A stretch of 64,000 bases of DNA, from the NCBI GenBank assembly GCA_026671195.1, contig JAPOHD010000027.1:372001-436000 (forward strand), in the 5' to 3' direction. Both the position numbers and the translations under genes were made by a program. Below are positions 49,911-60,922 of the stretch, piece after piece; positions within the stretch are counted from its first letter, which is position 1, and each line of letters starts with the position of its first letter. Under the pieces are notes generated by a model. That model was not told the origin of the DNA. It did not search any database and saw only the letters and a program-made list of their open reading frames with translations. Source of the DNA: Draconibacterium aestuarii. GTDB taxonomy: Bacteria; Bacteroidota; Bacteroidia; Bacteroidales; Prolixibacteraceae.

Positions 49911-50907
49911 TGTTGGAAGGAGTACCACAATTTGTACAATTTCCGTTGGTTGTAAGTCGATTCAGTTCTGTGTTGTACCGGTTTCTGGTCACCAAAACCT
50001 CTCCGCAGGAAGAGCAAAAAGTCGATGATCTTTCAACATCGCTCACATTTCCTAAATATACATGCTGAAGATGCTGCTTTGCTATGTTGTAAAACGAAGT
50101 TAACGTTTCAATGGGGGTAGGCGAAATAGTCATTTTAAATTGTGGATAGTAGCGCGAAAGGTGCAGCGGAGTTTTCTCCCCAAGTTCCGAAGCCACCCAT
50201 TTTACCATATTCTCAAACTCGGGTTTGTTATCGTTTAGCCCTGGAATTACAAGGTTGGTAATCTCTAAATGTGTTTGGCTTTGTGCAATTGTTTTTAAGG
50301 TTTCTAAAACCGGCTGAAGTTTCCCTTTGGTGTGCTTCTGATAAAATTCTTCCGAAAATGCTTTTAAATCGATGTTAAAGGCATCGATAAATGGAATTAA
50401 ATGCTGAAGCGGTTCAGTGTTGATATAGCCGTTTGAAACCACTACATTTTTAAGATTTGCCGCTTTTGCTTTTTCTGCGGTTTCCAGCATAAATTCGTAA
50501 AACGTAAAAGGTTCGTTGTAGGTGTAGGCAATTCCAATATTGTTCCAGGTTTTAAGTGCTTCGGTAATAATTTGGTCAGATGCGATGTTGTGAAATCCTG
50601 AAAACTGTTTTGCCTCGCATTGCGAAATCCGGTGGTTCTGGCAAAAGCTACAGTGCAGGTTGCACCCTACTTCTCCAATCGATAATATGCTGGTGCCGGG
50701 ATAAAAATGATAAAGTGGTTTTTTCTCAATAGGATCGGAACCCAGAGCAGCAACTTTGTTGTAGACCTCTGTAATCAGCCTGCCGTTTTGGTTGGTACGT
50801 ACCTTACAATTTCCTGTCTGATCAATATTCAGAATACAATTCCACGGACAAAGCTCACATTTTACCCGGTTCTCTTTCAATTTTGTATAAAAAAGAGCCT
50901 CTTTCAT
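49900..50907 (-). CDS. amrS: AmmeMemoRadiSam system radical SAM protein AmrS
   Basis: A 335-residue radical-SAM protein of the AmmeMemoRadiSam group. The SAM-cluster motif is C-N-L-H-C-S-F-C in GEVGCNLHCSFCQNHRISQ, with an N-terminal cysteine motif CELCPWNCIL and, at the C-terminus, a zinc-ribbon-like pair CSSCGEVL and CTNCG. The partners AmmeMemo (AmrA/AmrB) are not in the window. The system's reaction is not established. The gene starts 56 bp after the truncated GNAT gene stop, and repressor, GNAT and this gene may form one transcript. Confidence 0.9.
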   Translation of the reverse strand: MKEALFYTKLKENRVKCELCPWNCILNIDQTGNCKVRTNQNGRLITEVYNKVAALGSDPIEKKPLYHFYPGTSILSIGEVGCNLHCSFCQNHRISQCEAKQFSGFHNIASDQIITEALKTWNNIGIAYTYNEPFTFYEFMLETAEKAKAANLKNVVVSNGYINTEPLQHLIPFIDAFNIDLKAFSEEFYQKHTKGKLQPVLETLKTIAQSQTHLEITNLVIPGLNDNKPEFENMVKWVASELGEKTPLHLSRYYPQFKMTISPTPIETLTSFYNIAKQHLQHVYLGNVSDVERSSTFCSSCGEVLVTRNRYNTELNRLTTNGNCTNCGTPSNIKL

Positions 50908-50963
50908 TTTTTCCGAATTTATTTAAAGGTACAAAAAGCCTGACAATTGACCTTGAGCAGTCC

Positions 50964-51335
50964 TTAACAAAAGGGGAGGGAGGTCGGATTTTTCCTGGTT
51001 GTGCCGGTATTTCGCAAACTTTGTTTACCGCTCGAAAGTAACCAGTGTTCGGCAAGGTTTAAAAGCCGGGTTTCAATTTGTTTGTTTTTGTGAGTTGGCA
51101 AAACAGCCAGCATATAAATTGCGGTTGTCAGTTTGTCGGCAATAATAAAACCAACTACTTCGTTTTCAACTTCGCACAGCCAGCCTTTGTAAGAAGTTTT
51201 AAGTTTTTCGGCTATTGTTTCAACTGAGATTCCGCGCGTTTCCAGTTCTTCGTAAGTGAAATTGTTCTCATCGGTTGCCACTCTTACTTCAAAAATGGCT
51301 GGAATATCTTGCTGGGTAATTTCTTTAAATTTCAT
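50964..51335 (-). CDS. GNAT acetyltransferase, C-terminally truncated
   Basis: A 123-residue GNAT-fold protein. The N-terminal and core strands are normal (ITQQDIPAIFEVRVATDENN, WLCEVENEVVGFIIAD, AIYMLAVLPTHKNKQIETRL, where the acetyl-CoA loop Q/R-x-x-G/A appears as THKNKQIETRL). After LAEHWLLSSGKQSLR the sequence turns to NTGTTRKNPTSLPFC and stops, so the final strand-helix with the catalytic Tyr (usually AYGFYxKxGW) is missing. The acetyl-CoA loop also lacks its glycines. It is probably decaying or non-catalytic. It starts 1 bp after the stop of the S24 repressor gene, so it is co-transcribed with it. Confidence 0.7.
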   Translation of the reverse strand: MKFKEITQQDIPAIFEVRVATDENNFTYEELETRGISVETIAEKLKTSYKGWLCEVENEVVGFIIADKLTTAIYMLAVLPTHKNKQIETRLLNLAEHWLLSSGKQSLRNTGTTRKNPTSLPFC

Positions 51336-51336
51336 T

Positions 51337-52134
51337 TTACATTTTTTGAGTAAGTAAATTAATGTCAGATTTCATTTGTTCCACTTGTTTTACAAGCTTG
51401 CTTAAATCCGTCTCCGGATCAGGGAGTTCGGTGTTTAGGTAGCACACAAACTTCCAGGCTTCTTTTACTTCCGAAATGGGCACATCGTAAGGTTCAAAGT
51501 CGGTATTTAACGAAATCAGCCGAAGCAATCTGTTTTCGCTGATATTGTTTTCAGCCACTTTAAAAACAATGCCTTCATCGCGGGTAACAATAATGTAGGC
51601 CTGGTTGGTTTTTATATCGAAAAAATCCTGTATGAATTCGGCAATCACAATCGACCCATCCGGAATAGGCAGCATCGAATCGCCTTCAATAGAAAATGCA
51701 CGGTACTTTTTCTCTTTCGATAAAAAGGGCAACTGAAACACGGGCAGGTTGCCAATGTATTCCGGATCGGCAAAACTGTTTACGTAGCCCGCCTTGGCTT
51801 TTTCGTTTACAAATTCAATGTTGTCGGTGTTGCCCGAATCAACAGTGGTGGCAATTACCCGCAAATTGCTACCCCGGATAAACACATCAAAGCCGTTCTG
51901 TATATCGGTAAACTGGCTTTCTGAAAGTTGGCTCAGATCAATATTAATTAATGTATCGATTGCAATTCCAAAATACTTTGAAAACGACTGCAAATGATTT
52001 ACCGTTGGTTGACTAATGGTATTCTCCAGCGCATTTACAGTTGTTCGTTTTATATCGAGTGCCACTGCCACATCGTTTTGTGTTCGTTTTTTGCGGTTTC
52101 GCAATAATTTTATGTTGCTGCTGAAATAGTTCAT
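51337..52134 (-). CDS. LexA/CI-like repressor (HTH-XRE + S24 peptidase domain)
   Basis: A 265-residue self-cleaving-type repressor. The XRE helix-turn-helix is at about residues 5-60 (RKKRTQNDVAVALDIKRTTV, NALENTISQPTVNHL). The S24 domain has the Ala-Gly cleavage pair in EKAKAGYVNSF, the catalytic Ser in FSIEGDSMLPIPDGS and the Lys in GIVFKVAEN. So it could cleave itself in a RecA-dependent or similar stress response. A coiled C-terminus follows. Upstream lies a cluster of inverted repeats (52274-52307), its likely operator. It heads the GNAT gene; no phage genes are nearby, so it looks like a chromosomal stress repressor. Confidence 0.88.
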   Translation of the reverse strand: MNYFSSNIKLLRNRKKRTQNDVAVALDIKRTTVNALENTISQPTVNHLQSFSKYFGIAIDTLINIDLSQLSESQFTDIQNGFDVFIRGSNLRVIATTVDSGNTDNIEFVNEKAKAGYVNSFADPEYIGNLPVFQLPFLSKEKKYRAFSIEGDSMLPIPDGSIVIAEFIQDFFDIKTNQAYIIVTRDEGIVFKVAENNISENRLLRLISLNTDFEPYDVPISEVKEAWKFVCYLNTELPDPETDLSKLVKQVEQMKSDINLLTQKM

Positions 52135-52273
52135 GTTGTATCGTTTTGTTAATGACTAAAGTCCATCGGCGGGGAAACCTCGTTAATCCCGGGCTTAAGT
52201 CTTTAATCTTTTTTAATTCTAAATAGCACTCAAATTTACAAAATATTATTGCTGAAATAAAATAAATGATTAA

Positions 52274-52307
52274 ATTATTATCGGTATAAATGATAATAAT
52301 ATTATCA
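52274..52307. promoter_or_regulatory. Putative operator: overlapping TTATTATC/GATAATAA repeats
   Basis: Three half-sites: ATTATTATC (52274-52282) pairs with GATAATAAT (52292-52300) as 9-bp arms 9 bp apart, and TGATAATA-A-TATTATCA (52291-52307) is a perfect 17-bp palindrome sharing the middle half-site. They lie about 140-170 bp ahead of the LexA/CI-like repressor and 160 bp ahead of the radical-SAM gene, so a dimer bound here could control either side. Binding is inferred from symmetry and context. Confidence 0.5.
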
Positions 52308-52377
52308 ACGTGTGATATGACAGTAAAGATGACTCTCTAAAAATTCCTAAGTGTTCTCCTCTGTGTAGATGTAAAAT

Positions 52378-52399
52378 ATCCCCGGTTTTGTCCGGGGAT
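52378..52399 (+). terminator. GC-rich hairpin with T-tail upstream of the radical-SAM gene
   Basis: Arms ATCCCCGG (52378-52385) and CCGGGGAT (52392-52399), then five more T from 52400. It looks like a rho-independent terminator, yet no gene on the plus strand ends there; it may be a leader attenuator of the radical-SAM gene 67 bp downstream, or a repeat. Confidence 0.5.
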
Positions 52400-52466
52400 T
52401 TTTGCGAAAGGAAATGGATTTAAGGGATTTCTGCTTTGGATGAGATAAGAGTGTGTGAAATGAATA

Positions 52467-53765
52467 ATGAAAATGAGTAAGGACAAAGTTCATGAAAAAC
52501 TAAAGATACTTTCTGACGCGGCCAAATACGATGTGTCGTGCGCGTCGAGTGGAAGCAACCGTGCCAATACAGGCAAAGGAATTGGTACAGGTGTAGCTTG
52601 TGGAATTTGCCATAGTTTTACCGAGGATGGACGCTGTGTGAGTTTGTTTAAAATATTAATGACCAACAATTGTATATACGATTGCGCCTATTGTGTGAAC
52701 CGACGCACCAACGACCGTCCGCGTGCTACTTTTACGGCTCAGGAAATTGTGGATCTCACCATTGGTTTTTACCGCCGTAATTATATTGAAGGACTTTTTC
52801 TGAGTTCGGGCGTAATTAAAAGCCCCGATTATACGATGGAACGAATGGTACAGGTAGCCAAAAAACTCAGAAACGAAGAGAATTACAATGGTTATATTCA
52901 CTTAAAAGCCATTCCGGGAGCAAGCCGCGAGTTAATAAACGAAGCAGGAATTTGGGCCGACAGGTTGAGTGTAAATATGGAAATCCCGACAGAGCTTCAC
53001 CTAAAAAAATTGGCACCTGAAAAAAACTATCCCGATATAATTTCTCCGATGGGGCAAATACGCGATTCAATTCTAATGGCTAAAGAAGAACGGCAAAAAT
53101 ACCGCAAGGCACCGCGATTTGCTCCGGCCGGACAAAGTACACAGTTGATTGTTGGCGCATCACCCGAAACTGACCGGCAAATTATTTTGTTATCGTCGGG
53201 ATTGTACAAAAAACAAAACCTGAAACGCGTATATTTTTCGGGCTACCTGCCGGTAAATAGTTACGATCAGCGTTTGCCGGCCATAAACCGTCCGCCGCTG
53301 GTGCGCGAAAACCGGCTGTACCAAAGCGATTGGCTGATGCGTTTTTATCATTTTAAAGCCGAAGAGATTTTGTCGGAAGACCAGCCTTTCCTTGATTTGG
53401 ATGTAGATCCAAAACTTGGATTTGCCCTGCGAAACATGCATTTGTTTCCGGTGGATATTAACCGGGCCGATTACGAAATGATTTTGCGGATTCCGGGAGT
53501 TGGGGTGCAGTCGGCACAAAAAATTATTCTGGCCCGCAAACACCGTCGACTTAATTCGCTGCATCTAAAAAATATAGGAATTGTAATGAAACGAGCCAAG
53601 TACTTTATTACTTGCAACGAGCTGCCGGCCCACCGAATAGATTGGGAGCCGCAACGCTTAAAACATAAACTGCTTTGCGAAATGGATTCGAAATACAAAA
53701 AATCGCTGGACACACAGCTGAAACTTTTTACCGATTTCCGGCAGGCTCTTCCGCCTCTGCACTGA
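52467..53765 (+). CDS. Putative DNA modification/repair radical SAM protein
   Basis: A 432-residue radical-SAM protein of the group annotated 'putative DNA modification/repair radical SAM protein' (TIGR03916), often next to uracil-DNA glycosylase. The cluster motif is C-I-Y-D-C-A-Y-C in NNCIYDCAYCVNRRTNDRPR. The Ser/Cys-rich N-terminal CASSGSNRANTGKG and RFAPAGQSTQLIVGASPETD are also family traits. A helix-hairpin-helix DNA-binding motif is at the C-terminus (ADYEMILRIPGVGVQSAQKI). The start may instead be two codons in, at 52473. The reaction is unknown. The partner gene follows. Confidence 0.9.
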   Translation: MKMSKDKVHEKLKILSDAAKYDVSCASSGSNRANTGKGIGTGVACGICHSFTEDGRCVSLFKILMTNNCIYDCAYCVNRRTNDRPRATFTAQEIVDLTIGFYRRNYIEGLFLSSGVIKSPDYTMERMVQVAKKLRNEENYNGYIHLKAIPGASRELINEAGIWADRLSVNMEIPTELHLKKLAPEKNYPDIISPMGQIRDSILMAKEERQKYRKAPRFAPAGQSTQLIVGASPETDRQIILLSSGLYKKQNLKRVYFSGYLPVNSYDQRLPAINRPPLVRENRLYQSDWLMRFYHFKAEEILSEDQPFLDLDVDPKLGFALRNMHLFPVDINRADYEMILRIPGVGVQSAQKIILARKHRRLNSLHLKNIGIVMKRAKYFITCNELPAHRIDWEPQRLKHKLLCEMDSKYKKSLDTQLKLFTDFRQALPPLH

Positions 53766-53955
53766 AGTTCAAAGTTTAGAGTTGGGTGTTCCGTTTTTAT
53801 GAAACAGGAGTTAAAATGTCAGCCCATTTCTCTTCCTGTTGAAGAAATGGAAGCCCTCCCGGCAAGACCATCGGACGGAGACGAAGAGAAACAACGAGGG
53901 GGTTGTTGGAGTTGTAAGTTTAAGTTATGCTACATCAGGTATTCAGAATCATGTC

Positions 53956-54732
53956 ATGAAAATATACACCTACGATAATACATTTGAAGGGTTGCTTACC
54001 TGTGTTTTTGAGTGTTATAACCGCAAAGATTTTCCGGTTGATATTTGCTCGCGCACTGGTGAACAGCGTTATTTGTTTGTTGAAAAAATTGATATTGAAA
54101 CCAATCCCCAAAAGGCAGAGCGCGTTTGGAAAGGGATACAGAAACAGCTTTCGGGAAAAAATAAACAACTGTTGTTTTATGCTTTCCTTTCGGAAGAAAT
54201 GGGAATAGAAATGAAGATTTACCGTTTTCTGCGACGGTTGTTTAGCGGGCACCTGAACCTGGAAACCGATTATGGCGATTCGGATGTATTGTACCTTACA
54301 CAAACCTCGCAAAAGGTTAAAAAGGAAGCTATGCGTATGTTACAGTTTGTGCGTTTTCAGCGAACAAAAGACCGGATGTTTTTTTGTGGTATTGAGCCCA
54401 AATACGATGTTGTTCCGCTTATTCTCGATCATTATAAAAAACGCTTTGCCGATCAGAAGTGGCTGATTTACGACCTGAAACGGAACTATGGAGTTTTCTA
54501 TGACAAAGACAAAGTGGAGGAAGTGGAAATTTCGAAAAAACAGTTTAATACACTGACCGGGCAAGTGAATAAGCAATTATTGGACGATAGCGAAGATTTT
54601 TACCAAAAACTCTGGCGCTCGTATTTTAAGCACATTACTATTGAAGAGCGGAAAAACCTGCGTTTGCAACGCCAGCACATGCCCCGGCGGTTTTGGCGGT
54701 ATTTGCCCGAAAAACAGGGGGAGAAGAAATAG
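53956..54732 (+). CDS. DUF4130/TIGR03915 family putative DNA-metabolism protein
   Basis: A 258-residue protein of the family that pairs with the preceding radical-SAM gene (TIGR03915, C-terminal DUF4130). In other bacteria a uracil-DNA glycosylase is fused or adjacent; none is seen here. The start at 53956 (MKIYTYDNTFEGLLTCVF) fits the family; the longer frame from 53839 adds 39 residues of unlikely sequence. Typical blocks are MLQFVRFQRTKDRMFFCGIE, PKYDVVPLILDHYKKRFAD, W-Y-D-like WLIYDLKRNYGVFYD, and a C-terminal LWRSYFKHITIEERKNLRLQ. The palindrome array starts 10 bp after its stop. The gap to the radical-SAM gene is about 190 bp. Confidence 0.9.
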   Translation: MKIYTYDNTFEGLLTCVFECYNRKDFPVDICSRTGEQRYLFVEKIDIETNPQKAERVWKGIQKQLSGKNKQLLFYAFLSEEMGIEMKIYRFLRRLFSGHLNLETDYGDSDVLYLTQTSQKVKKEAMRMLQFVRFQRTKDRMFFCGIEPKYDVVPLILDHYKKRFADQKWLIYDLKRNYGVFYDKDKVEEVEISKKQFNTLTGQVNKQLLDDSEDFYQKLWRSYFKHITIEERKNLRLQRQHMPRRFWRYLPEKQGEKK

Positions 54733-54741
54733 TAGGCAGGT

Positions 54742-54969
54742 TTTCCCGGGCATGGGAAAGTCTCTGCTAATGCGCAATGAAGGTTTCCCGCTGTTGGGAA
54801 AGTCAGAACCGGATTTAAAAGAACATTTCCGCACTTGCGGAAAACAAGAACCAGAATAAGAACAGACTTTCCGCAAGTGCGGAAAGCCTAAACTGAAATT
54901 CAGACAAACTTTCCGCAGCTGCGGAAAATTGCAACTCAACTTATAACGAGGTTTCCGTAAAGGCGGAAA
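54742..54969. repeat. Six 18-bp palindromes at an exact 42-bp period
   Basis: Palindromes start at 54742, 54784, 54826, 54868, 54910 and 54952, exactly 42 bp apart, with 24-bp unique spacers. All have arms TTTCC and GGAAA. The first two use C at arm position 6 and G opposite (TTTCCC/GGGAAA). The other four use G and C (TTTCCG/CGGAAA). This is a compensatory change that keeps pairing. The central copies are longest: TTTCCGCA/TGCGGAAA at 54826 and 54868, and a full 18-bp palindrome at 54910. The spacers differ from each other and are A-rich on the plus strand. The array lies just past the DUF4130 gene. It is not a CRISPR: repeats are too short and not identical. 42 bp is four turns of B-DNA, and also 2 x 21. 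Confidence 0.85.
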
Positions 54970-55118
54970 TTAATTATCCATTCGGCAGAAGGGATGGTCT
55001 TTTAAACGTGTCGACAGCAACTGAGCTTATTTTTCTTACTCTCTTTCAAAACTGCCTTTGAGCACAGTTGCAACAAATGGAAGTAACTTTGCGGGCTTTC
55101 AGAGCGAATGAAGTTTAT
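54970..55118. other. Intergenic region after the palindrome array
   Basis: About 150 bp with no gene or fold I can name, ending at the hairpin before the permease stop. Confidence 0.4.
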
Positions 55119-55170
55119 AAAAAAGATCCGATCCTTTCGATATCAAATAAATAAGGATCGGATCTTTTTT
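55119..55170. terminator. Long terminator hairpin, GATCCGATCC core
   Basis: Perfect 18-bp arms (55119-55136 with 55153-55170), 16-nt loop, with A-runs on one side and T-runs on the other, 30 bp past the permease stop. It can end transcripts from both directions. It shares the GATCCGATCC core with the hairpin at 17291-17332. Confidence 0.8.
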
Positions 55171-55199
55171 TACTGTCAACTGCGATTAAATGCTGAACT

Positions 55200-56405
55200 C
55201 TATTTGTCTTCTTCCTTCGTTTTTGGCAGGATCAGATTCAGGATAATTCCAACAGTTGCTGCCAAACCAATTCCGGCCAGAGAGAAAGTTCCATACGAAA
55301 TAATGGCTCCACCAATTCCAACGGTAAGCACTATCGAAACAATTACCTGGTTGCGTGTTTCTGCCATATTTGTTCTCGAATCAATCATGGTTTTAATGCC
55401 GATTGAAGCAATCATTCCAAAAAGCAGAAGCATAATTCCGCCTAAAACTGCCTGCGGAATGGTTTTCAGGAAACCACTTATTTTACCTACAAAGGCAAAA
55501 ACAATGGCTGTAATGGCCGAAACGCGCAAAATAAAAGGGTTGGTTACTTTAGTCAGTGTTATTGCTCCGGTAACTTCAGAGTAGGTTGTGTTGGGTACAC
55601 CCCCAAAAAATCCGGCCAGTGCGGTTGCAATACCATCGCCAAGTAAGGTGCGGTGTAAACCCGGTTTTTCAATAAAATTCTTATCGCATACACCGCCAAT
55701 GGCGTACATATCGCCCACGTGTTCAATAATTGGAGCAATGGCCACCGGTACCATATATAAAATGGCCTGCCAGCTAAATTTTGGAGTGGTAAATTGGGGT
55801 AAGGTAAGCCAGTCGGCGTTTTGAATTGCGGAGTAATCCACCTTTCCCCAAGTTAATGCCACAGCGTAGCCAACGGCAATGGCAATAAAAATAGGAATCA
55901 GTTTGATCATTTTTTTACCAAAAATTACTACTATAATGGCAGTAAAAAGAGTAACAACGGCAATTGCCCAATCGGTTTTGGCCATGTCGACAGCTGTTGA
56001 TGCCAGCGACAAACCAATAAGTAAAATAATTGGCCCAACCACAACCGCAGGAAACAGGCGCTCTACAAATGTAATTCCGCGCAGTTTTACCAGGGTCGAT
56101 ACAATGCCGTAAACAAGACCGACTGCAATTATGCCCGACAGCGTTCCCGGCCAGCCATATAATCTTGTGGCTTCAATAATTGGTGCAATAAAAGCAAAAC
56201 TACTTCCCAAAAATACGGGTACCTGTCCTTTGGTAATCAGGTGAAATAACAAGGTGCCAATACCTGCTGTAAATAATGCTACGGCCGGATCGATACCTAC
56301 CAGCAACGGAACAAGCACGGTTGCTCCAAAAGCAACAAATAAAAACTGAACACCCAATACGGTGTTTTTAAAGGTTAACTGTTCTTGTAAAGTTTTACCA
56401 CTCAT
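55200..56405 (-). CDS. NCS2 family uracil/xanthine permease
   Basis: A 401-residue nucleobase:cation symporter of the NCS2 (UraA/PbuX) family with about 12-14 membrane helices. The start at 56405 (MSGKTLQEQLTF) begins where the family normally does; the ATG at 56477 would add 24 poor residues. Signature blocks are QFLFVAFGATVLVPLLVGID, VFLGSSFAFIAPI (helix 3), PVAIAPIIEHVGDMYAIGG (the key Glu of the NCS2 motif) and GGVPNTTYSEVTGAITLTKV. The UraA-like Glu-His pattern in IIEHVGD favours uracil. It is followed by a strong terminator. Confidence 0.92.
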   Translation of the reverse strand: MSGKTLQEQLTFKNTVLGVQFLFVAFGATVLVPLLVGIDPAVALFTAGIGTLLFHLITKGQVPVFLGSSFAFIAPIIEATRLYGWPGTLSGIIAVGLVYGIVSTLVKLRGITFVERLFPAVVVGPIILLIGLSLASTAVDMAKTDWAIAVVTLFTAIIVVIFGKKMIKLIPIFIAIAVGYAVALTWGKVDYSAIQNADWLTLPQFTTPKFSWQAILYMVPVAIAPIIEHVGDMYAIGGVCDKNFIEKPGLHRTLLGDGIATALAGFFGGVPNTTYSEVTGAITLTKVTNPFILRVSAITAIVFAFVGKISGFLKTIPQAVLGGIMLLLFGMIASIGIKTMIDSRTNMAETRNQVIVSIVLTVGIGGAIISYGTFSLAGIGLAATVGIILNLILPKTKEEDK

Positions 56406-56481
56406 ACTTTTCTTTTTATCTGATTTTAAATTTTGCACAAAAATATACCCACTTCGAAAGAAATGGGTATAAAACAATTTT

Positions 56482-57282
56482 TTATTGAAGTATTTCAGCC
56501 GGTATTTCTTTTATCGGCTTTATTTTAACCGTTCGAATATACAATTCACCACCTTCCGATTGAAATTGAATTTTTCCTTTCGAGAGTGGCTCTGTGTTTC
56601 CTTCACCCAGGTATTTCCCCGAGTTGTAATTAATCATGTTAACTTTTCCATTAACTACATGTGCCGAAGTTGTTCCCGCACAATACAGTTCCACAGTATT
56701 CCATTCTCCAACCGGATTCTCATAATCGGCGTCTTTTGCCACAACTCTGGTTTCAGTATCAGGGATCGAAGGGATTTTATCTGCACCTTTAGCGTAACCA
56801 TATTTTCCTTCGCTGTTTTTCTTCATTGGAATTTCGCAATACGATTTCCCCATACGGTACGAGTCGCCAATATTTCCAGACCACAATTGTAATTCGTGTG
56901 AACTCATCCATACGCCAAGTCCAACTCCAAAATCACCATAACTGTGGTATAACAATCCTGAGTTTCTGGTTTTAAATACCTTGTCGCCCCATTTAAACTC
57001 AACCTGTAAATGATAATTTTCAAATTCTTCGAGAGTGGCCAGCGAGGCATTTATTTCTCCCGATATCCGAATTACCTTTTCGCCGTCAAGATCGACAACT
57101 GAAAACAGGTTCAAAGGGTCCTTGTTTAACCCAACCGGGTCTCCTCCTTCTTCGGTCGGTCCAACATAGGTTTCCCACCCGTCCAGATTTTCTCCATTAA
57201 AGAGTTGTTGCCAGGGTTTTTCGCATGAGTTGAATAGAATTGCCGAAATGGCCAGTGAAAGAAAGAATACTAATTTCTTCAT
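56482..57282 (-). CDS. DUF1080 (3-keto-disaccharide hydrolase) lipoprotein
   Basis: A 266-residue lipoprotein (lipobox SAILFNSC) of the DUF1080/3-keto-disaccharide hydrolase family, a concanavalin-like fold. Visible blocks are LFNGENLDGWETYVG, NYHLQVEFKWGDKVFKTRNS, GLLYHSYGDFGVGLGVWMSS, HELQLWSGNIGDSY and the C-terminal LSKGKIQFQSEGGELYIRTV, all typical. Known relatives act on 3-keto-glycosides made by Gfo/Idh/MocA dehydrogenases, which fits other genes of the window, although it is about 20 kb from them. No operon partner is evident. Confidence 0.88.
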   Translation of the reverse strand: MKKLVFFLSLAISAILFNSCEKPWQQLFNGENLDGWETYVGPTEEGGDPVGLNKDPLNLFSVVDLDGEKVIRISGEINASLATLEEFENYHLQVEFKWGDKVFKTRNSGLLYHSYGDFGVGLGVWMSSHELQLWSGNIGDSYRMGKSYCEIPMKKNSEGKYGYAKGADKIPSIPDTETRVVAKDADYENPVGEWNTVELYCAGTTSAHVVNGKVNMINYNSGKYLGEGNTEPLSKGKIQFQSEGGELYIRTVKIKPIKEIPAEILQ

Positions 57283-57378
57283 GATATAATATAAAGTTTA
57301 GATGAATAAAGGCATAAAAAAACTGCCCTATAAATATAGAACAGTTTCTTAAATATTTTTGGTAACTTTTGTTTTTTG

Positions 57379-57633
57379 TTAAACTGCTTCTGCTTTGATT
57401 AATTCTTTTGCCCTGTCGAGGATTGTTGTGTCATCCAAGAGTACAATACCACCGTTAGGACCTGGTTCCATATGGATTCCAACTGCTTTCCCCTCTCTGT
57501 AATTCGCGCCTCCAAAATAATTCCTGACGGTTGCTACTGATACGTCAAATTCTTGCGCCATTTGTCTAATTGCTCCGTCAGGTAAGCTGTCTTTGATTTT
57601 TCGCAGCTCGTTAAATGTTATTTTTTTCTCCAT
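57379..57633 (-). CDS. Small helix-turn-helix DNA-binding protein
   Basis: An 84-residue protein. The N-terminal part (about 1-45) reads like a helix-turn-helix: ITFNELRKIKDSLPDGAIRQ, AQEFDVSVATVRNYFGG. The second half (YREGKAVGIHMEPGPNGGIV, then LLDDTTILDRAKELIKAEA) is typical of small DNA-binding proteins found in many Bacteroidota genomes, of unknown role. Two perfect inverted repeats lie upstream (57667-57681 and 57797-57817) and may be its operators. Single gene. Confidence 0.8.
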   Translation of the reverse strand: MEKKITFNELRKIKDSLPDGAIRQMAQEFDVSVATVRNYFGGANYREGKAVGIHMEPGPNGGIVLLDDTTILDRAKELIKAEAV

Positions 57634-57666
57634 ATCGCTGTAGTATTATTTTGATTAATAAATATG

Positions 57667-57681
57667 GTTCTTTTAAAGAAC
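57667..57681. promoter_or_regulatory. Inverted repeat next to small HTH gene (operator candidate)
   Basis: GTTCTTT-T-AAAGAAC, perfect 7-bp arms, 33 bp before the start of the 84-residue DNA-binding gene. Its symmetry and position fit an autoregulatory operator. Confidence 0.4.
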
Positions 57682-57796
57682 AATGTCTCGTACAGGTAAA
57701 AATAGAATTAATAATTTAATAATAAAAGTCTGAAGAGCATGTATTGTTTATTCCTGAGAAGAAGCGTTTTTTTTATGTAAATTATAAGTGACTTTG

Positions 57797-57817
57797 GATT
57801 GTGTAATGTACACAATC
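57797..57817. promoter_or_regulatory. Inverted repeat GATTGTGTA/TACACAATC
   Basis: Perfect 9-bp arms (57797-57805 and 57809-57817) around ATG. No T-run follows, so it is more like a protein site than a terminator. Confidence 0.4.
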
Positions 57818-57973
57818 GCAATTGATTATGTGTTTCGGTCTATTCTGAGGCGGTTATTGGGCCATTGATTTATTAACATTTTTTAAGTCATTGATTTGTT
57901 GGTTTTAGGCTGATTTGTATAATAATTAATATTGAATTAAAAAAATCAGTTATTCACGGCGAGAAATGTTCTG

Positions 57974-60922
57974 TTAGAATGCCTTTTTCTCAAAGCTGTC
58001 GTATATGGCTTGATGAATGGCAGTTCGTATGTTGAGCTCGTACAGTTTTGGGTTTTCGCGTGTGGGGTGAACGCGGTTCGACATAAAAATATAGAGCAAC
58101 CCATTTTCAGGATCGGCCCAGGCAAAAGTTCCTGTATATCCACTGTGACCAAAGCTACTGCGACTTGCAGATACGGCCGGGTAGGCGTCCTTTAAGTTGT
58201 TTTTGTTGTTATCAATTAAGGGTTTGTCGAAACCTAAACCTCGCCTGTTTTTATTTTCGGCATACTGGATGCGTGTGAATTCATCTATTGTTTTTTCGGA
58301 AATATATCTTCTGCCGCCAAAATAACCTTTCTGCAGGTACATTTGAAATAGCTTGGCCAAATCGTTTGTATTCCCAAAAAGACCTGCATTGCCAGATATA
58401 CCTCCCATCATGGCAGCTCCTTCGTCGTGAACAAAACCGTGCAGTTTATCCATCCTGAAAAAGTCATCGTTTTCGGTGGGAATAATTTGTTTAAGCGGAA
58501 AATGAAGGTAAGCATTGTGGGTAACAGTATAAGCGCCCAGGGGTTTAAAAAAAGTTTCTTTGAGGTAGTCTTCGTAGGGTTGGCCTGTCATATTCTCAAT
58601 TATGTCGGGGTATAAATAAAAGCTAAGTCCCGAGTACAGATAACGATGTCGATTTTCAAGTTTTGAAGTTCGGATGGTATCGAACATCTCTTTTTTGAAA
58701 TCCACATTCATGTACATCTTTTCTGAAACGCGAACACAGAATTTTTCACTCGGGTGATCACTAAATACCTGTTTGTCGAGTTTTCCGTTTTTGTCAAGAG
58801 TGGTCGACCAGAACGGAATCCACGAGGCCAGACGTGCCTGGTGTGCCAGTATTTCCCTGAATTTTAGGTTTTCTTTATTTGATCCTTTAAAATCGGGCCA
58901 ATAATCACTGAATTTGGCATCGATATTAATCTTTTTCTCATCTACCAATTTCATTATTACCGGCAGTGGGCCGGTAACCTTTGTAACAGATGCCCAATCG
59001 TATATATTTTCCTGGGTTACTTCTAAAATACTGTCGTATGTTTGGTATCCATAACATTTATGAAATATTACCTGACCGTTTTTCGCCACCAGAACCTGGC
59101 AGCCCGGATAGGCTTTTTCGCTTATTCCCAGTTCTGCAATCGAATCTATCTGGCGATAAAGTCTTTTTGAGTTTATTTTGGCCTCTTCAGGGATGGTGTA
59201 CGAAAAACAGCTATTTTTTTTTACTTCGTGCCCGTCGTTTAATTTAAAGCGTTGGTCAATTGTGATGGGCAATTTCCCGTTAGCATCGAATGCCCCAAAA
59301 ATAAGTTGTGCTGCCAGCTCCTGCGTTAGTTTGTTGTCCTGATGAGCTAAAATTAAAGCCTTGGCATGATGAATGTTTTCAAAATGTTTTAGAGCGTAGG
59401 CATTGCCAAAAAATACAAATGTTGTTTTATTTTCTTCCACCAGATCAGAAACTGCTTTACGCTGAATTTCTGTTGTACCGTATTTTTGTGATGAATATCT
59501 GTGAATCCCGTCTATTCCGGCAATTATCTGCGAGTAATTTTCTAATTTCTGACGCAAGTTGACCCATTCTTTTTCTGTGGCATTTTTCGATATCCGGAAA
59601 TGGTCTACTTCAGTATATTTTGCCAGCATTTTCTGAAAGGCAGTGTACTGACCGCTTCCAATCATTAGAGTGGCAATTTTTGTTTTCTCCAAATCCTGAA
59701 CCGGCAAAGCATCATTGTTGACTAACACAGTAAACGAGCCTTTTATTAGTTTTCGGTTGGTTACTTCAAAATAGGGCGAATTTAACCGATAAGTCAGATC
59801 TTTTATGATGGTTGGTTTGTATTCGTTTAAACCTACCCAGCGTTTTAATGCCAGTATTGTACGGCATTTTTCATTAATTTCTTTTTCCGAAATCTGGTTT
59901 TTCGAAATGGCCCCAACTATCGAACTTATAGCCTTTTCAAGGTCTGGTACAAACTCAACCATGTCGTTCCCCGCATTAATGGCTTCAAATTCGGCTTTGC
60001 CTGGTGCGGCCTGTACTCCTTTCATGGTAATCGCATCGGTAACCACAAATCCTTTAAATCCAATTTCGGTTTTTAAGTATTCGTTAATTACTTTTTTCGA
60101 AAGCGACGAGGTTTTGCCCGATTCGTCAAGCGATGGAACATTCAGGTGTCCCGACATAATTCCCGATATTCCTTTTTCTGCAAGATAACGGAACGGATAA
60201 CTTTCAACTGTGTCGATACGTTTTTTTGAATGCGGAACAAGCGGGAGGGTTTTATGCGAATCTGTTTGGGTATCGCCATGTCCGGGGAAATGTTTGGCCA
60301 CTGGAATTACGCCCGCATCCTGCATCCCTTTGGCTACCATCCACGATTTTATGGCTACATTTTCTTTGTCTTCGCCAAACGAGCGGAAATTAATAACCGG
60401 ATTGTTTGGATTTGTATTAATGTCGGCAACCGGAGCGAAATTCATATGAATGCCCAACAGTTTTAACTGGTAGGCATAATCGCGTCCCATCTGGTAAATA
60501 AAAGTAGTGTCCTGAATGGCTCCGAGTGTTTGTGCGTAGGGATAAATAATGGTACTGTCGATGCGCATTGCCGGTCCCCATTCTCCGTCAACGGCAACTA
60601 ATAATGGCGTTTCAGAGGCTTCCTGGAATTGGTTGATCCACGTTGCTGTTTTACACGGGGTGCCCTGCATAATTAAAATTCCACCGGGTTTGTAGCTTTC
60701 TATTTTTTTTAGGATGGCATCTTTACTGGCGTCATTTTGTTTGGGATAAACCGTAATCATCATTAGTTGAGCAATTTTTTCCTCAAGAGTAAGTTGTTCT
60801 AACTGTTGATTTACCCAATCATCGTTTTTGTATTTGCTAAATGGAGGTTCTGTGGCATGTAATTCGAAGGTGTTAAATAAAAATGCACAGATAATTATGT
60901 ATGTATAGTTGGTGACTTTCAT
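57974..60922 (-). CDS. GH3 (NagZ-like) + serine hydrolase (AmiE-like) fusion
   Basis: A 982-residue exported two-enzyme protein (signal peptide about 1-24). The N-terminal GH3 part (about 30-370) has the NagZ-type dyad in KHFPGHGDTQTDSH (K210, H211, H223) and nucleophile D296 in FVVTDAITMKGV; a GH3 C-terminal domain follows (about 390-570). The second enzyme (about 595-970) is a class-C beta-lactamase/AmiE-type serine hydrolase with S645-V-T-K648 in WASVTKVTGP, a Tyr-containing YSGLSFYLYPDI and HSGYTGTFAWADPENG near the end. In Bacillus, separate NagZ (GH3) and AmiE (beta-lactamase-like amidase) work with NamZ in muropeptide rescue; here the next, divergent gene is NamZ-like. I infer a GlcNAc-MurNAc-peptide-degrading protein. 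Confidence 0.88.
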   Translation of the reverse strand: MKVTNYTYIIICAFLFNTFELHATEPPFSKYKNDDWVNQQLEQLTLEEKIAQLMMITVYPKQNDASKDAILKKIESYKPGGILIMQGTPCKTATWINQFQEASETPLLVAVDGEWGPAMRIDSTIIYPYAQTLGAIQDTTFIYQMGRDYAYQLKLLGIHMNFAPVADINTNPNNPVINFRSFGEDKENVAIKSWMVAKGMQDAGVIPVAKHFPGHGDTQTDSHKTLPLVPHSKKRIDTVESYPFRYLAEKGISGIMSGHLNVPSLDESGKTSSLSKKVINEYLKTEIGFKGFVVTDAITMKGVQAAPGKAEFEAINAGNDMVEFVPDLEKAISSIVGAISKNQISEKEINEKCRTILALKRWVGLNEYKPTIIKDLTYRLNSPYFEVTNRKLIKGSFTVLVNNDALPVQDLEKTKIATLMIGSGQYTAFQKMLAKYTEVDHFRISKNATEKEWVNLRQKLENYSQIIAGIDGIHRYSSQKYGTTEIQRKAVSDLVEENKTTFVFFGNAYALKHFENIHHAKALILAHQDNKLTQELAAQLIFGAFDANGKLPITIDQRFKLNDGHEVKKNSCFSYTIPEEAKINSKRLYRQIDSIAELGISEKAYPGCQVLVAKNGQVIFHKCYGYQTYDSILEVTQENIYDWASVTKVTGPLPVIMKLVDEKKINIDAKFSDYWPDFKGSNKENLKFREILAHQARLASWIPFWSTTLDKNGKLDKQVFSDHPSEKFCVRVSEKMYMNVDFKKEMFDTIRTSKLENRHRYLYSGLSFYLYPDIIENMTGQPYEDYLKETFFKPLGAYTVTHNAYLHFPLKQIIPTENDDFFRMDKLHGFVHDEGAAMMGGISGNAGLFGNTNDLAKLFQMYLQKGYFGGRRYISEKTIDEFTRIQYAENKNRRGLGFDKPLIDNNKNNLKDAYPAVSASRSSFGHSGYTGTFAWADPENGLLYIFMSNRVHPTRENPKLYELNIRTAIHQAIYDSFEKKAF

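What the first reader, a model, noticed from the sequence alone, without database searches (positions are those of the whole stretch)
54742..54969. Six hairpin palindromes at an exact 42-bp period next to a DNA-repair gene pair
Six 18-bp palindromes start at exactly 42-bp steps (54742, 54784, 54826, 54868, 54910, 54952), separated by 24-bp spacers that differ in sequence. Arm position 6 changes C to G with the matching G to C change on the other arm, which argues for selection on pairing or dyad symmetry rather than on sequence. The 42-bp step puts all six sites on the same face of the DNA. The spacers are A-rich on the plus strand, as expected for unpaired linkers in an RNA. It could be a multi-dimer protein-binding array, a string-of-hairpins RNA, or a repeat that spreads by slippage. 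It does not match CRISPR (short, non-identical repeats; no cas genes).
Basis: seen in the sequence. Interest (0 to 1): 0.88.

Follow-up and report, generated by a model that had tools for sequence, protein, structure and literature searches.

The report
Orphan array of evenly spaced palindromes
The window holds six palindromes at an exact 42-base step, and related bacteria often carry the same kind of array just in front of genes of an unstudied protein family (DUF6261), so this looks like a stand-alone copy of an undescribed array-plus-gene pair.

Summary
In detail: six TTTCC-N8-GGAAA dyads at exact 42-bp steps. Relatives carry many such arrays; a period-free scan of 395 phylum genomes gave 13 of 15 matches at 42 bp and 2 at 41. 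Arms change in pairs; before one gene, all six units differ in their arms between species.

The partner is not the DNA-repair pair. Of 67 DUF6261 loci found by protein search, 22 have a 41-43-bp dyad chain within 700 bp upstream and none downstream. Of 135 arrays, 22 have DUF6261 within 600 bp, each with the array 5' of the gene. The window array is a solo copy: the same slot is empty in G358, holds array plus DUF6261 in G359, and array alone in G000 and G334. One copy (array, DUF6261, RAYT) sits between cas9 and cas1.

No G-U preference in stems (48 GT, 51 AC) and no common reading frame argue for DNA rather than RNA or protein. I favour a helically phased multi-dimer site serving DUF6261; binding is inferred, not shown.

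The parts
54742..54969 (.). six-unit dyad array, step 42 bp (the finding)
   Evidence: the A-rich spacer strand is + (spacers), the strand on which DUF6261 lies after related arrays (L265)
54742..54759 (.). dyad 1 TTTCCCGGGCATGGGAAA
54784..54801 (.). dyad 2 TTTCCCGCTGTTGGGAAA
54826..54843 (.). dyad 3 TTTCCGCACTTGCGGAAA
54868..54885 (.). dyad 4 TTTCCGCAAGTGCGGAAA
54910..54927 (.). dyad 5 TTTCCGCAGCTGCGGAAA
54952..54969 (.). dyad 6 TTTCCGTAAAGGCGGAAA
54760..54951 (.). five 24-bp spacers between the dyads, diverged copies of a sequence shared with other arrays of the genus
   Evidence: identity 0.42 within this array, 0.53 to the G332 C24 array, background 0.29
53953..54732 (+). left edge of the slot: putative DNA repair gene TIGR03915/DUF4130 (not part of the module)
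55119..55170 (.). 18-bp inverted repeat, terminator-like, between array and permease gene
55200..56477 (-). right edge of the slot: NCS2-family permease gene (not part of the module); no DUF6261 gene between array and this gene
   Evidence: no DUF6261 hit at E 1e-4 in window 50001-60000

Best explanation
The array is a solo copy of a two-part module of Bacteroidota: a run of dyad-symmetric sites (3-13, most often 4-6) every 42 bp (41-43), and a DUF6261 gene that in complete copies begins within about 0.4 kb after it. Shown: the phasing, the paired arm changes, the place 5' of DUF6261, and the solo state in this window. Inferred: the array works as double-stranded DNA. Each dyad has two 7-bp half-sites around 4 free bases and would be bound by a protein dimer; the step of about four helical turns (10.5 bp per turn, recalled) puts all dimers on one face so that they bind together. 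The likely binder is the DUF6261 protein or a regulator that travels with it, so that in complete copies the array controls or anchors DUF6261. Here, without the gene, it is an orphan site that a DUF6261 protein from elsewhere in the genome may still use.
For: Period-free: 13 of 15 matches at 42 and 2 at 41 in 395 genomes, reversed pattern 1; in 255,630 bp of G352 dyads of any sequence chain only at 42 (8), 84 (4) and 21 (1) of periods 18-99. Units matching an array's own arms lie 42 bp apart 100 times in the genus, against 84 three times and 19, 23, 41, 67, 74, 85 once each. Covariation: 224 of 380 inner pairs Watson-Crick, shuffles 141, largest 167. Arms more alike than spacers within arrays in 14 of 15 (genus) and 48 of 65 (others). 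Arm switch before the same gene between G332/G334 and G000. DUF6261: 22 of 67 loci with a 41-43 chain upstream, 0 downstream; 22 of 135 arrays within 600 bp, 22 of 22 with the array on the 5' side. Slot states. DNA rather than RNA; no gene-end bias, 81 three-prime and 88 five-prime ends.
Against: No binding data. The helical DUF6261 model (pTM 0.57) has no PDB match at E 0.001 and shows no known DNA-binding fold. Arm likeness follows protein likeness only weakly (Spearman 0.17, Mantel p 0.037; 0.10 for pairs under 60% protein identity). 113 of 135 arrays have no DUF6261 within 600 bp, and 45 of 67 DUF6261 loci have no chain. Direct orthologue comparison does not show fewer gaps in arrays (2 gaps to 77 changes) than in flanks (9 to 251). 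Arms differ between arrays of one genome, which a single sequence-specific protein would not need. The query came from an array locus, and 5 of the 22 loci were already known array loci.
Confidence: 0.5

Rival explanations
1. REP/BIME-like mobile element: the array is an extragenic palindromic repeat copied in trans; the module array-DUF6261 (sometimes with a RAYT) is the autonomous form and solo arrays are non-autonomous copies. The dyads matter as hairpins in single-stranded DNA.
For: Presence/absence at the same slot. Array, DUF6261 and a REP-associated transposase-like gene together between cas9 and cas1 in L171. RAYT, array and DUF6261 in a row in G331 and G346. A DUF6261 gene next to a RAYT in G359 (L510). 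TTTCGTA arrays of one subfamily at loci without shared flanking genes (L266 against L269 and L272). PMC6006769 (passages) reports atypical secondary structures beside Bacteroidetes subclass 2.6 RAYTs.
Against: RAYT beside the array is rare: 1 orthologous pair among 19 Y1_Tnp loci of the genus (a third, L295, has a chain about 700 bp off); among 30 RAYT homologue loci of the order 0 at 42 or 21 and 1 at 41, no more than other periods. A hairpin needs no 42-bp step.
Confidence: 0.25
2. RNA leader: the arrays are transcribed before DUF6261 as strings of hairpins that control its mRNA or bind the protein; the window array is an RNA element in the 3' UTR of the repair gene.
For: Place 5' of DUF6261. 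Spacers A-richer on the sense strand in 24 of 34 co-directional arrays, p 0.008, strongest in the genus and including orthologue duplicates. Strong folding, z -5.5 and -5.7. The window array starts 9 bp after a stop codon.
Against: GT 48 and AC 51 in sense-strand stems; 28 and 29 when the rows are summed by hand in gene orientation for 18 of the 22 DUF6261-linked arrays; both strands fold alike; constant spacing is not needed.
Confidence: 0.1
3. Neutral self-perfecting repeat: template switching in hairpins and unequal crossing-over make the arms symmetric and alike within an array, with no function.
For: Explains arms alike within and different between arrays, paired changes without G-U steps, and solo copies.
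Against: Does not explain the shared 41-43 step in several families, the scarcity of other spacings or the 5' side of DUF6261 in 22 of 22.
Confidence: 0.1
4. Coding repeat of 14 amino acids.
For: 42 is a multiple of 3; one minus-strand frame is open through the window array.
Against: 7 of 24 genus arrays have stops in all six frames; 41-bp arrays keep no frame.
Confidence: 0.01

Closest known systems
REP/BIME elements with RAYT transposases, especially Bacteroidetes subclass 2.6 (PMC6006769, passages read)
   Same: Short palindromes, extragenic, dispersed, clustered, solo and gene-linked copies; a RAYT stands beside the module in a few loci
   Different: Constant 41-43-bp step, arms private to each array, DUF6261 rather than RAYT as the usual neighbour; no GTAG foot in the dyads
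sopC-type partition sites and plasmid iterons (recalled, no call)
   Same: Tandem units of about 43 bp with a central inverted repeat bound by a dimer (recalled)
   Different: Many chromosomal copies with different arms per genome; linked to DUF6261; no partition gene family stood out beside arrays
32-33-bp TTTC/GAAA dyad pairs before AAA ATPase genes (seen here)
   Same: 18-bp dyads with the same outer bases, 5' of a gene, about three helical turns apart
   Different: 2-3 copies, other period, other gene family; the window genome has one weak DUF4143 match
CRISPR arrays
   Same: Regularly spaced palindromic repeats
   Different: 18-bp non-identical dyads; spacers are homologous between arrays

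Membership tests
REP/BIME-RAYT (REPtron) | RAYT gene flanked by the repeat | tested here: not met
   1 orthologous pair of 19 genus loci directly adjacent; 0 of 30 order loci at 42 or 21 bp; exceptions L171, G331/G346
REP/BIME-RAYT (REPtron) | GT[AG]G foot at the hairpin (not required for subclass 2.6) | tested here: not met
   dyads are TTTC..GAAA with no such foot in the window array
REP/BIME-RAYT (REPtron) | extragenic, dispersed, varying between relatives | tested here: met
Partition (ParB/sopC-like) site | tandem inverted repeats at constant spacing | tested here: met
Partition (ParB/sopC-like) site | ParA/ParB genes beside the array | tested here: inconclusive
   not among the neighbour clusters printed; no specific search made
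CRISPR | near-identical repeats and unrelated spacers | tested here: not met
CRISPR | cas genes beside the window array | not tested
   no cas search; flanking genes are those
Structured RNA | stems that tolerate G-U more than A-C on the transcribed strand | tested here: not met
   48 GT, 51 AC
Structured RNA | match to a described RNA family | tested here: not met
   only four tRNAs in the window
Array-DUF6261 module (proposed here) | DUF6261 gene downstream of the array | tested here: not met
   absent in the window: solo copy; met in 22 of 135 arrays
Array-DUF6261 module (proposed here) | DUF6261 binds the array | not testable with these tools
   needs protein-DNA assays

The most novel reading that the evidence does not exclude
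A widespread two-part system of Bacteroidota in which each DUF6261 paralogue has its own phased array of dyads; the arms are a private recognition code that can change in all units of an array, the proteins assemble along the array, and solo arrays such as this one are distant anchoring or control sites. It would be a class of protein-DNA array distinct from CRISPR, REP and partition sites.
Probability: 0.3. Interest if true: 0.9.

Novelty: categorically new. Interest (0 to 1): 0.8.

Why it matters
Eight paper searches (open-licence PubMed Central only) showed no description of these arrays, and DUF6261 is named in one paper, seen only as a listing. The pairing gives a first functional handle on DUF6261, makes a direct prediction (each protein binds its own array), and offers a natural series of sites in which the recognition sequence changes while symmetry and spacing stay fixed.

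Tried and rejected
RAYT as general partner: the neighbour in G331 looked promising, but it fails for most RAYT loci; later checks found further RAYT neighbours of DUF6261 (L171, L510), so the REP-like reading stays as the main rival. AAA ATPases with 32-33-bp dyads as binders: the window genome has one weak DUF4143 match. Coding repeat. 3' UTR element: no 3' bias, 81 to 88. Phage origin: 7 stretches in the viral collection, no blastn match of the array in phages, no DUF6261 match in plasmids, one unannotated 4,155-base phage record at 32% identity, not followed. Defence-system models: no match for 3 DUF6261 proteins. PDB sequence search: a partial coiled-coil match, best E 6e-4, not followed.

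My own slips: one search already showed a 46-locus neighbour cluster that I dismissed as frames running through arrays; the masked run found 21 DUF6261 loci clustering together. In one search minus-strand loci were read in the wrong orientation; one search replaces it. The order-wide pattern was too loose. The second dyad at phase 21 follows in part from the symmetry of the repeat and is not used as independent support.

For some searches, 108 of 144 loci offered passed a filter of three dyads with 6 of 9 Watson-Crick pairs, which favours paired units. Some orthologues were dropped by hand, others remain. The 14 genomes were chosen because most had matches. One search located 67 of 70 loci; L455 and L515 are the same gene, so 66 are distinct. 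Two of the eight G000 matches counted are not in its listing; their spacing is taken.

Full report
Observation. The window has six 18-bp dyads TTTCC-N8-GGAAA at exactly 42-bp steps, 54742 to 54969, and no other in 64 kb; shuffles give a mean of 0.28. Units 1-2 have TTTCCC/GGGAAA arms and units 3-6 TTTCCG/CGGAAA, a paired change. The array starts 9 bp after the stop of a TIGR03915/DUF4130 gene, which follows a TIGR03916 radical SAM gene. A terminator-like inverted repeat and a convergent NCS2 permease gene lie beyond it.

More arrays. The window genome has others of the same step: C20:656063 onward (TTTCCGC-type units followed by TTTCAT-type units), C64:137474-137701, C2:132569 and C69:23930. 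In 14 same-genus genomes, most chosen for having matches, 113 dyad pairs lie exactly 42 bp apart and the reversed pattern gives 1; allowing any period from 27 to 57 in the same genomes raises this to 142, reversed pattern 12.

Period without bias. A scan of 395 phylum genomes for TTTCC-N8-GGAAA pairs at any period 27-57 matched 4 genomes of 4 families, 15 matches, 13 at 42 and 2 at 41; the reversed pattern matched once. An order-wide scan of 393 genomes with TTTC[CG] arms matched 34 genomes (reversed pattern 4 matches); in its incomplete listing the recurrent periods gather at 41-43 and at 32-33, with one AT-rich array at 44-46 and scattered single pairs. In 255,630 bp of G352, dyads of any sequence form chains of three or more at 42 (8), 84 (4) and 21 (1) and at no other period from 18 to 99; arms there include CAATC/GATTG and TTGCAGAA/TTCTGCAA.

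Dyads kept by paired change. In 76 distinct 18-mers inner pairs are Watson-Crick in 224 of 380, against 141 in shuffles (largest of 1000: 167); pair 5-14 is in 72 of 76 with all four pair types; pairs 8-11 and 9-10 are in 25 and 18 of 76. Between orthologous arrays, arms changed at 18 of 433 sites, loops at 13 of 124, spacers at 46 of 576, flanks at 251 of 3534. Within arrays of the genus inner arms are alike at 0.78, spacers at 0.53, loops at 0.46 (15 arrays); elsewhere 0.87, 0.81 and 0.72 (65 arrays).

Spacing kept. Successive units that match an array's own arms, sought without a period condition, lie 42 bp apart 100 times in the genus, 84 three times, and 19, 23, 41, 67, 74 and 85 once each; elsewhere 42 (290), 21 (138) and 41 (16) lead. 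Against this, orthologue comparison shows 2 gaps to 77 changes in arrays and 9 to 251 in flanks: indel avoidance is seen between units, not over short times.

Arrays with different arms are related. Spacers of TTTCCGC, TTTCCCA and TTTCGGG arrays are about 0.5-0.6 alike in the best pairs, against 0.29 for shuffled ones. Before a gene whose protein is 74% identical, G332 and G334 have six units with G at position 6 and C at 13 in six of six; G000 has six units with C at position 6 in six of six and the matching G at 13 in four of six. The loci are matched by this downstream gene only.

The linked gene. That gene is DUF6261 (PF19775). Among 67 DUF6261 loci of the genus found by protein search (66 distinct genes; the query came from an array locus, and 5 of the positives were known before), dyad chains of three or more within 700 bp upstream occur at 42 (17 loci), 41 (6), 43 (1) and in at most 2 loci at any other period from 28 to 56; downstream there is one chain, at 45. 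Twenty-two of 67 have a 41-43-bp chain upstream. Their arms are diverse: TTTCC, TTTCG, TGTTTT/AAAACA, TCTCGAC/GTCGACA and others. From the other side, of 135 arrays (118 from the contig scan and 17 of the genus), 22 have DUF6261 within 600 bp, all 22 with the array 5' of the gene, and none lies farther off in those loci. Twelve of these 22 proteins were checked and pass the Pfam cut-off. Hosts named include Kaistella, Chryseobacterium, Flavobacterium, Tannerella, Alistipes, Prevotellaceae and one Fibrobacter bin. A second family follows arrays of the 21-bp kind in 6 of 6 loci, within 132 bp and on the same side; 5 of these 6 proteins were scanned and none passes a Pfam cut-off.

A solo copy. 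In relatives the slot between DUF4130 and the permease gene has three states. It is empty in G358 and, judged from the sequence print, in seven more (L241, L247, L249, L253, L257, L258, L259). It holds DUF6261 in G359, with three dyads of TTTCGC arms at -242, -200 and -74 before it, in 42-bp phase but too broken to count as a chain. It holds an array alone in G000 and G334, and in G332 and G336 after another gene. No DUF6261 hit lies within window 50001-60000. The window genome has eight DUF6261 matches elsewhere, two of them fragments at contig ends.

Mobility. In L171 an array with TTTCGGG arms, a DUF6261 gene and a REP-associated-transposase-like gene (below the NCBIfam cut-off, above Pfam's for Y1_Tnp) lie in this order between cas9 and cas1. 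G331 and G346 have RAYT, array and DUF6261 in a row. These keep a REP-like, mobile reading open.

DNA or RNA. In sense-strand stems of 34 co-directional arrays there are 48 G-T and 51 A-C mismatches; a selected RNA stem should prefer G-U. Summing the rows by hand for 18 DUF6261-linked arrays in gene orientation gives 28 and 29. Array neighbours face it with 81 three-prime and 88 five-prime ends. The one result for RNA is that spacers are A-richer on the sense strand in 24 of 34 arrays, p 0.008. Both strands of the window array fold well (z -5.5 and -5.7), as a palindrome array must. Seven of 24 genus arrays have stops in all six frames.

Mechanism. I take the array to be a row of dimer sites on one face of the DNA, belonging to DUF6261. 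The protein model (Kaistella sequence, 15-row alignment) is all-helical, mean pLDDT 90.9, pTM 0.57, without a PDB match at E 0.001; it neither supports nor excludes DNA binding. Each paralogue may read its own arms, but protein and arm likeness are only weakly linked (Spearman 0.17, Mantel p 0.037). Binding is an inference.

Known systems. REP/BIME elements are nearest by look, but the RAYT is a rare neighbour. PMC6006769 (passages) reports atypical secondary structures, without the GT[AG]G foot, beside Bacteroidetes subclass 2.6 RAYTs; I could not see them and cannot exclude that some are such arrays. PMC3733652 (passages) describes GTAG and CGTC repeats of another form. In working, sopC and iterons are nearest (recalled). 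Eight paper searches showed no description of such arrays; the library lacks most subscription papers.

Noticed in passing
L379, L386, L387, L389, L390, L393, L395, L402, L404, L406: Two or three TTTC..GAAA dyads 32-33 bp apart lie 3-161 bp before AAA-ATPase-like genes in 10 of 13 loci looked at; operator-like. The AAA_14/DUF4143 label is recalled from the sequence (GPRQVGKTT), not scanned.
   Followed up: partly
L105, L142, L143, L146, L149, L155: A second small protein family, without a Pfam match above cut-off in the 5 scanned, follows arrays with a 21-bp period in 6 of 6 loci.
   Followed up: partly
L171 1-4495: Array, DUF6261 and a RAYT-like gene lie between cas9 and cas1 of a type II CRISPR locus.
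   Followed up: partly
L262 and L300: RAYT with the YIHQNP motif, array with TTTCGGG-type arms and DUF6261 in a row in G331 and G346.
   Followed up: yes
L510 1489-2913: A DUF6261 gene and a RAYT gene stand 190 bp apart in G359 without a detected array.
   Followed up: partly
L266 2500-3000: TTTCGTA arrays of G332 repeat their spacers in threes, a 126-bp higher-order period.
   Followed up: no
L041 1500-1620: G059 has runs of 16-bp TTTCCC/GGGAAA dyads every 22 bp (read from the sequence), a further period class.
   Followed up: no
G876:C149:15153-15420: One array mixes 41- and 42-bp steps, useful for testing the phase idea.
   Followed up: no
L015 1063-1570: One array of the window genome changes halfway from TTTCC-type to TTTCAT/ATGAAA arms while keeping the 42-bp step.
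   Followed up: partly
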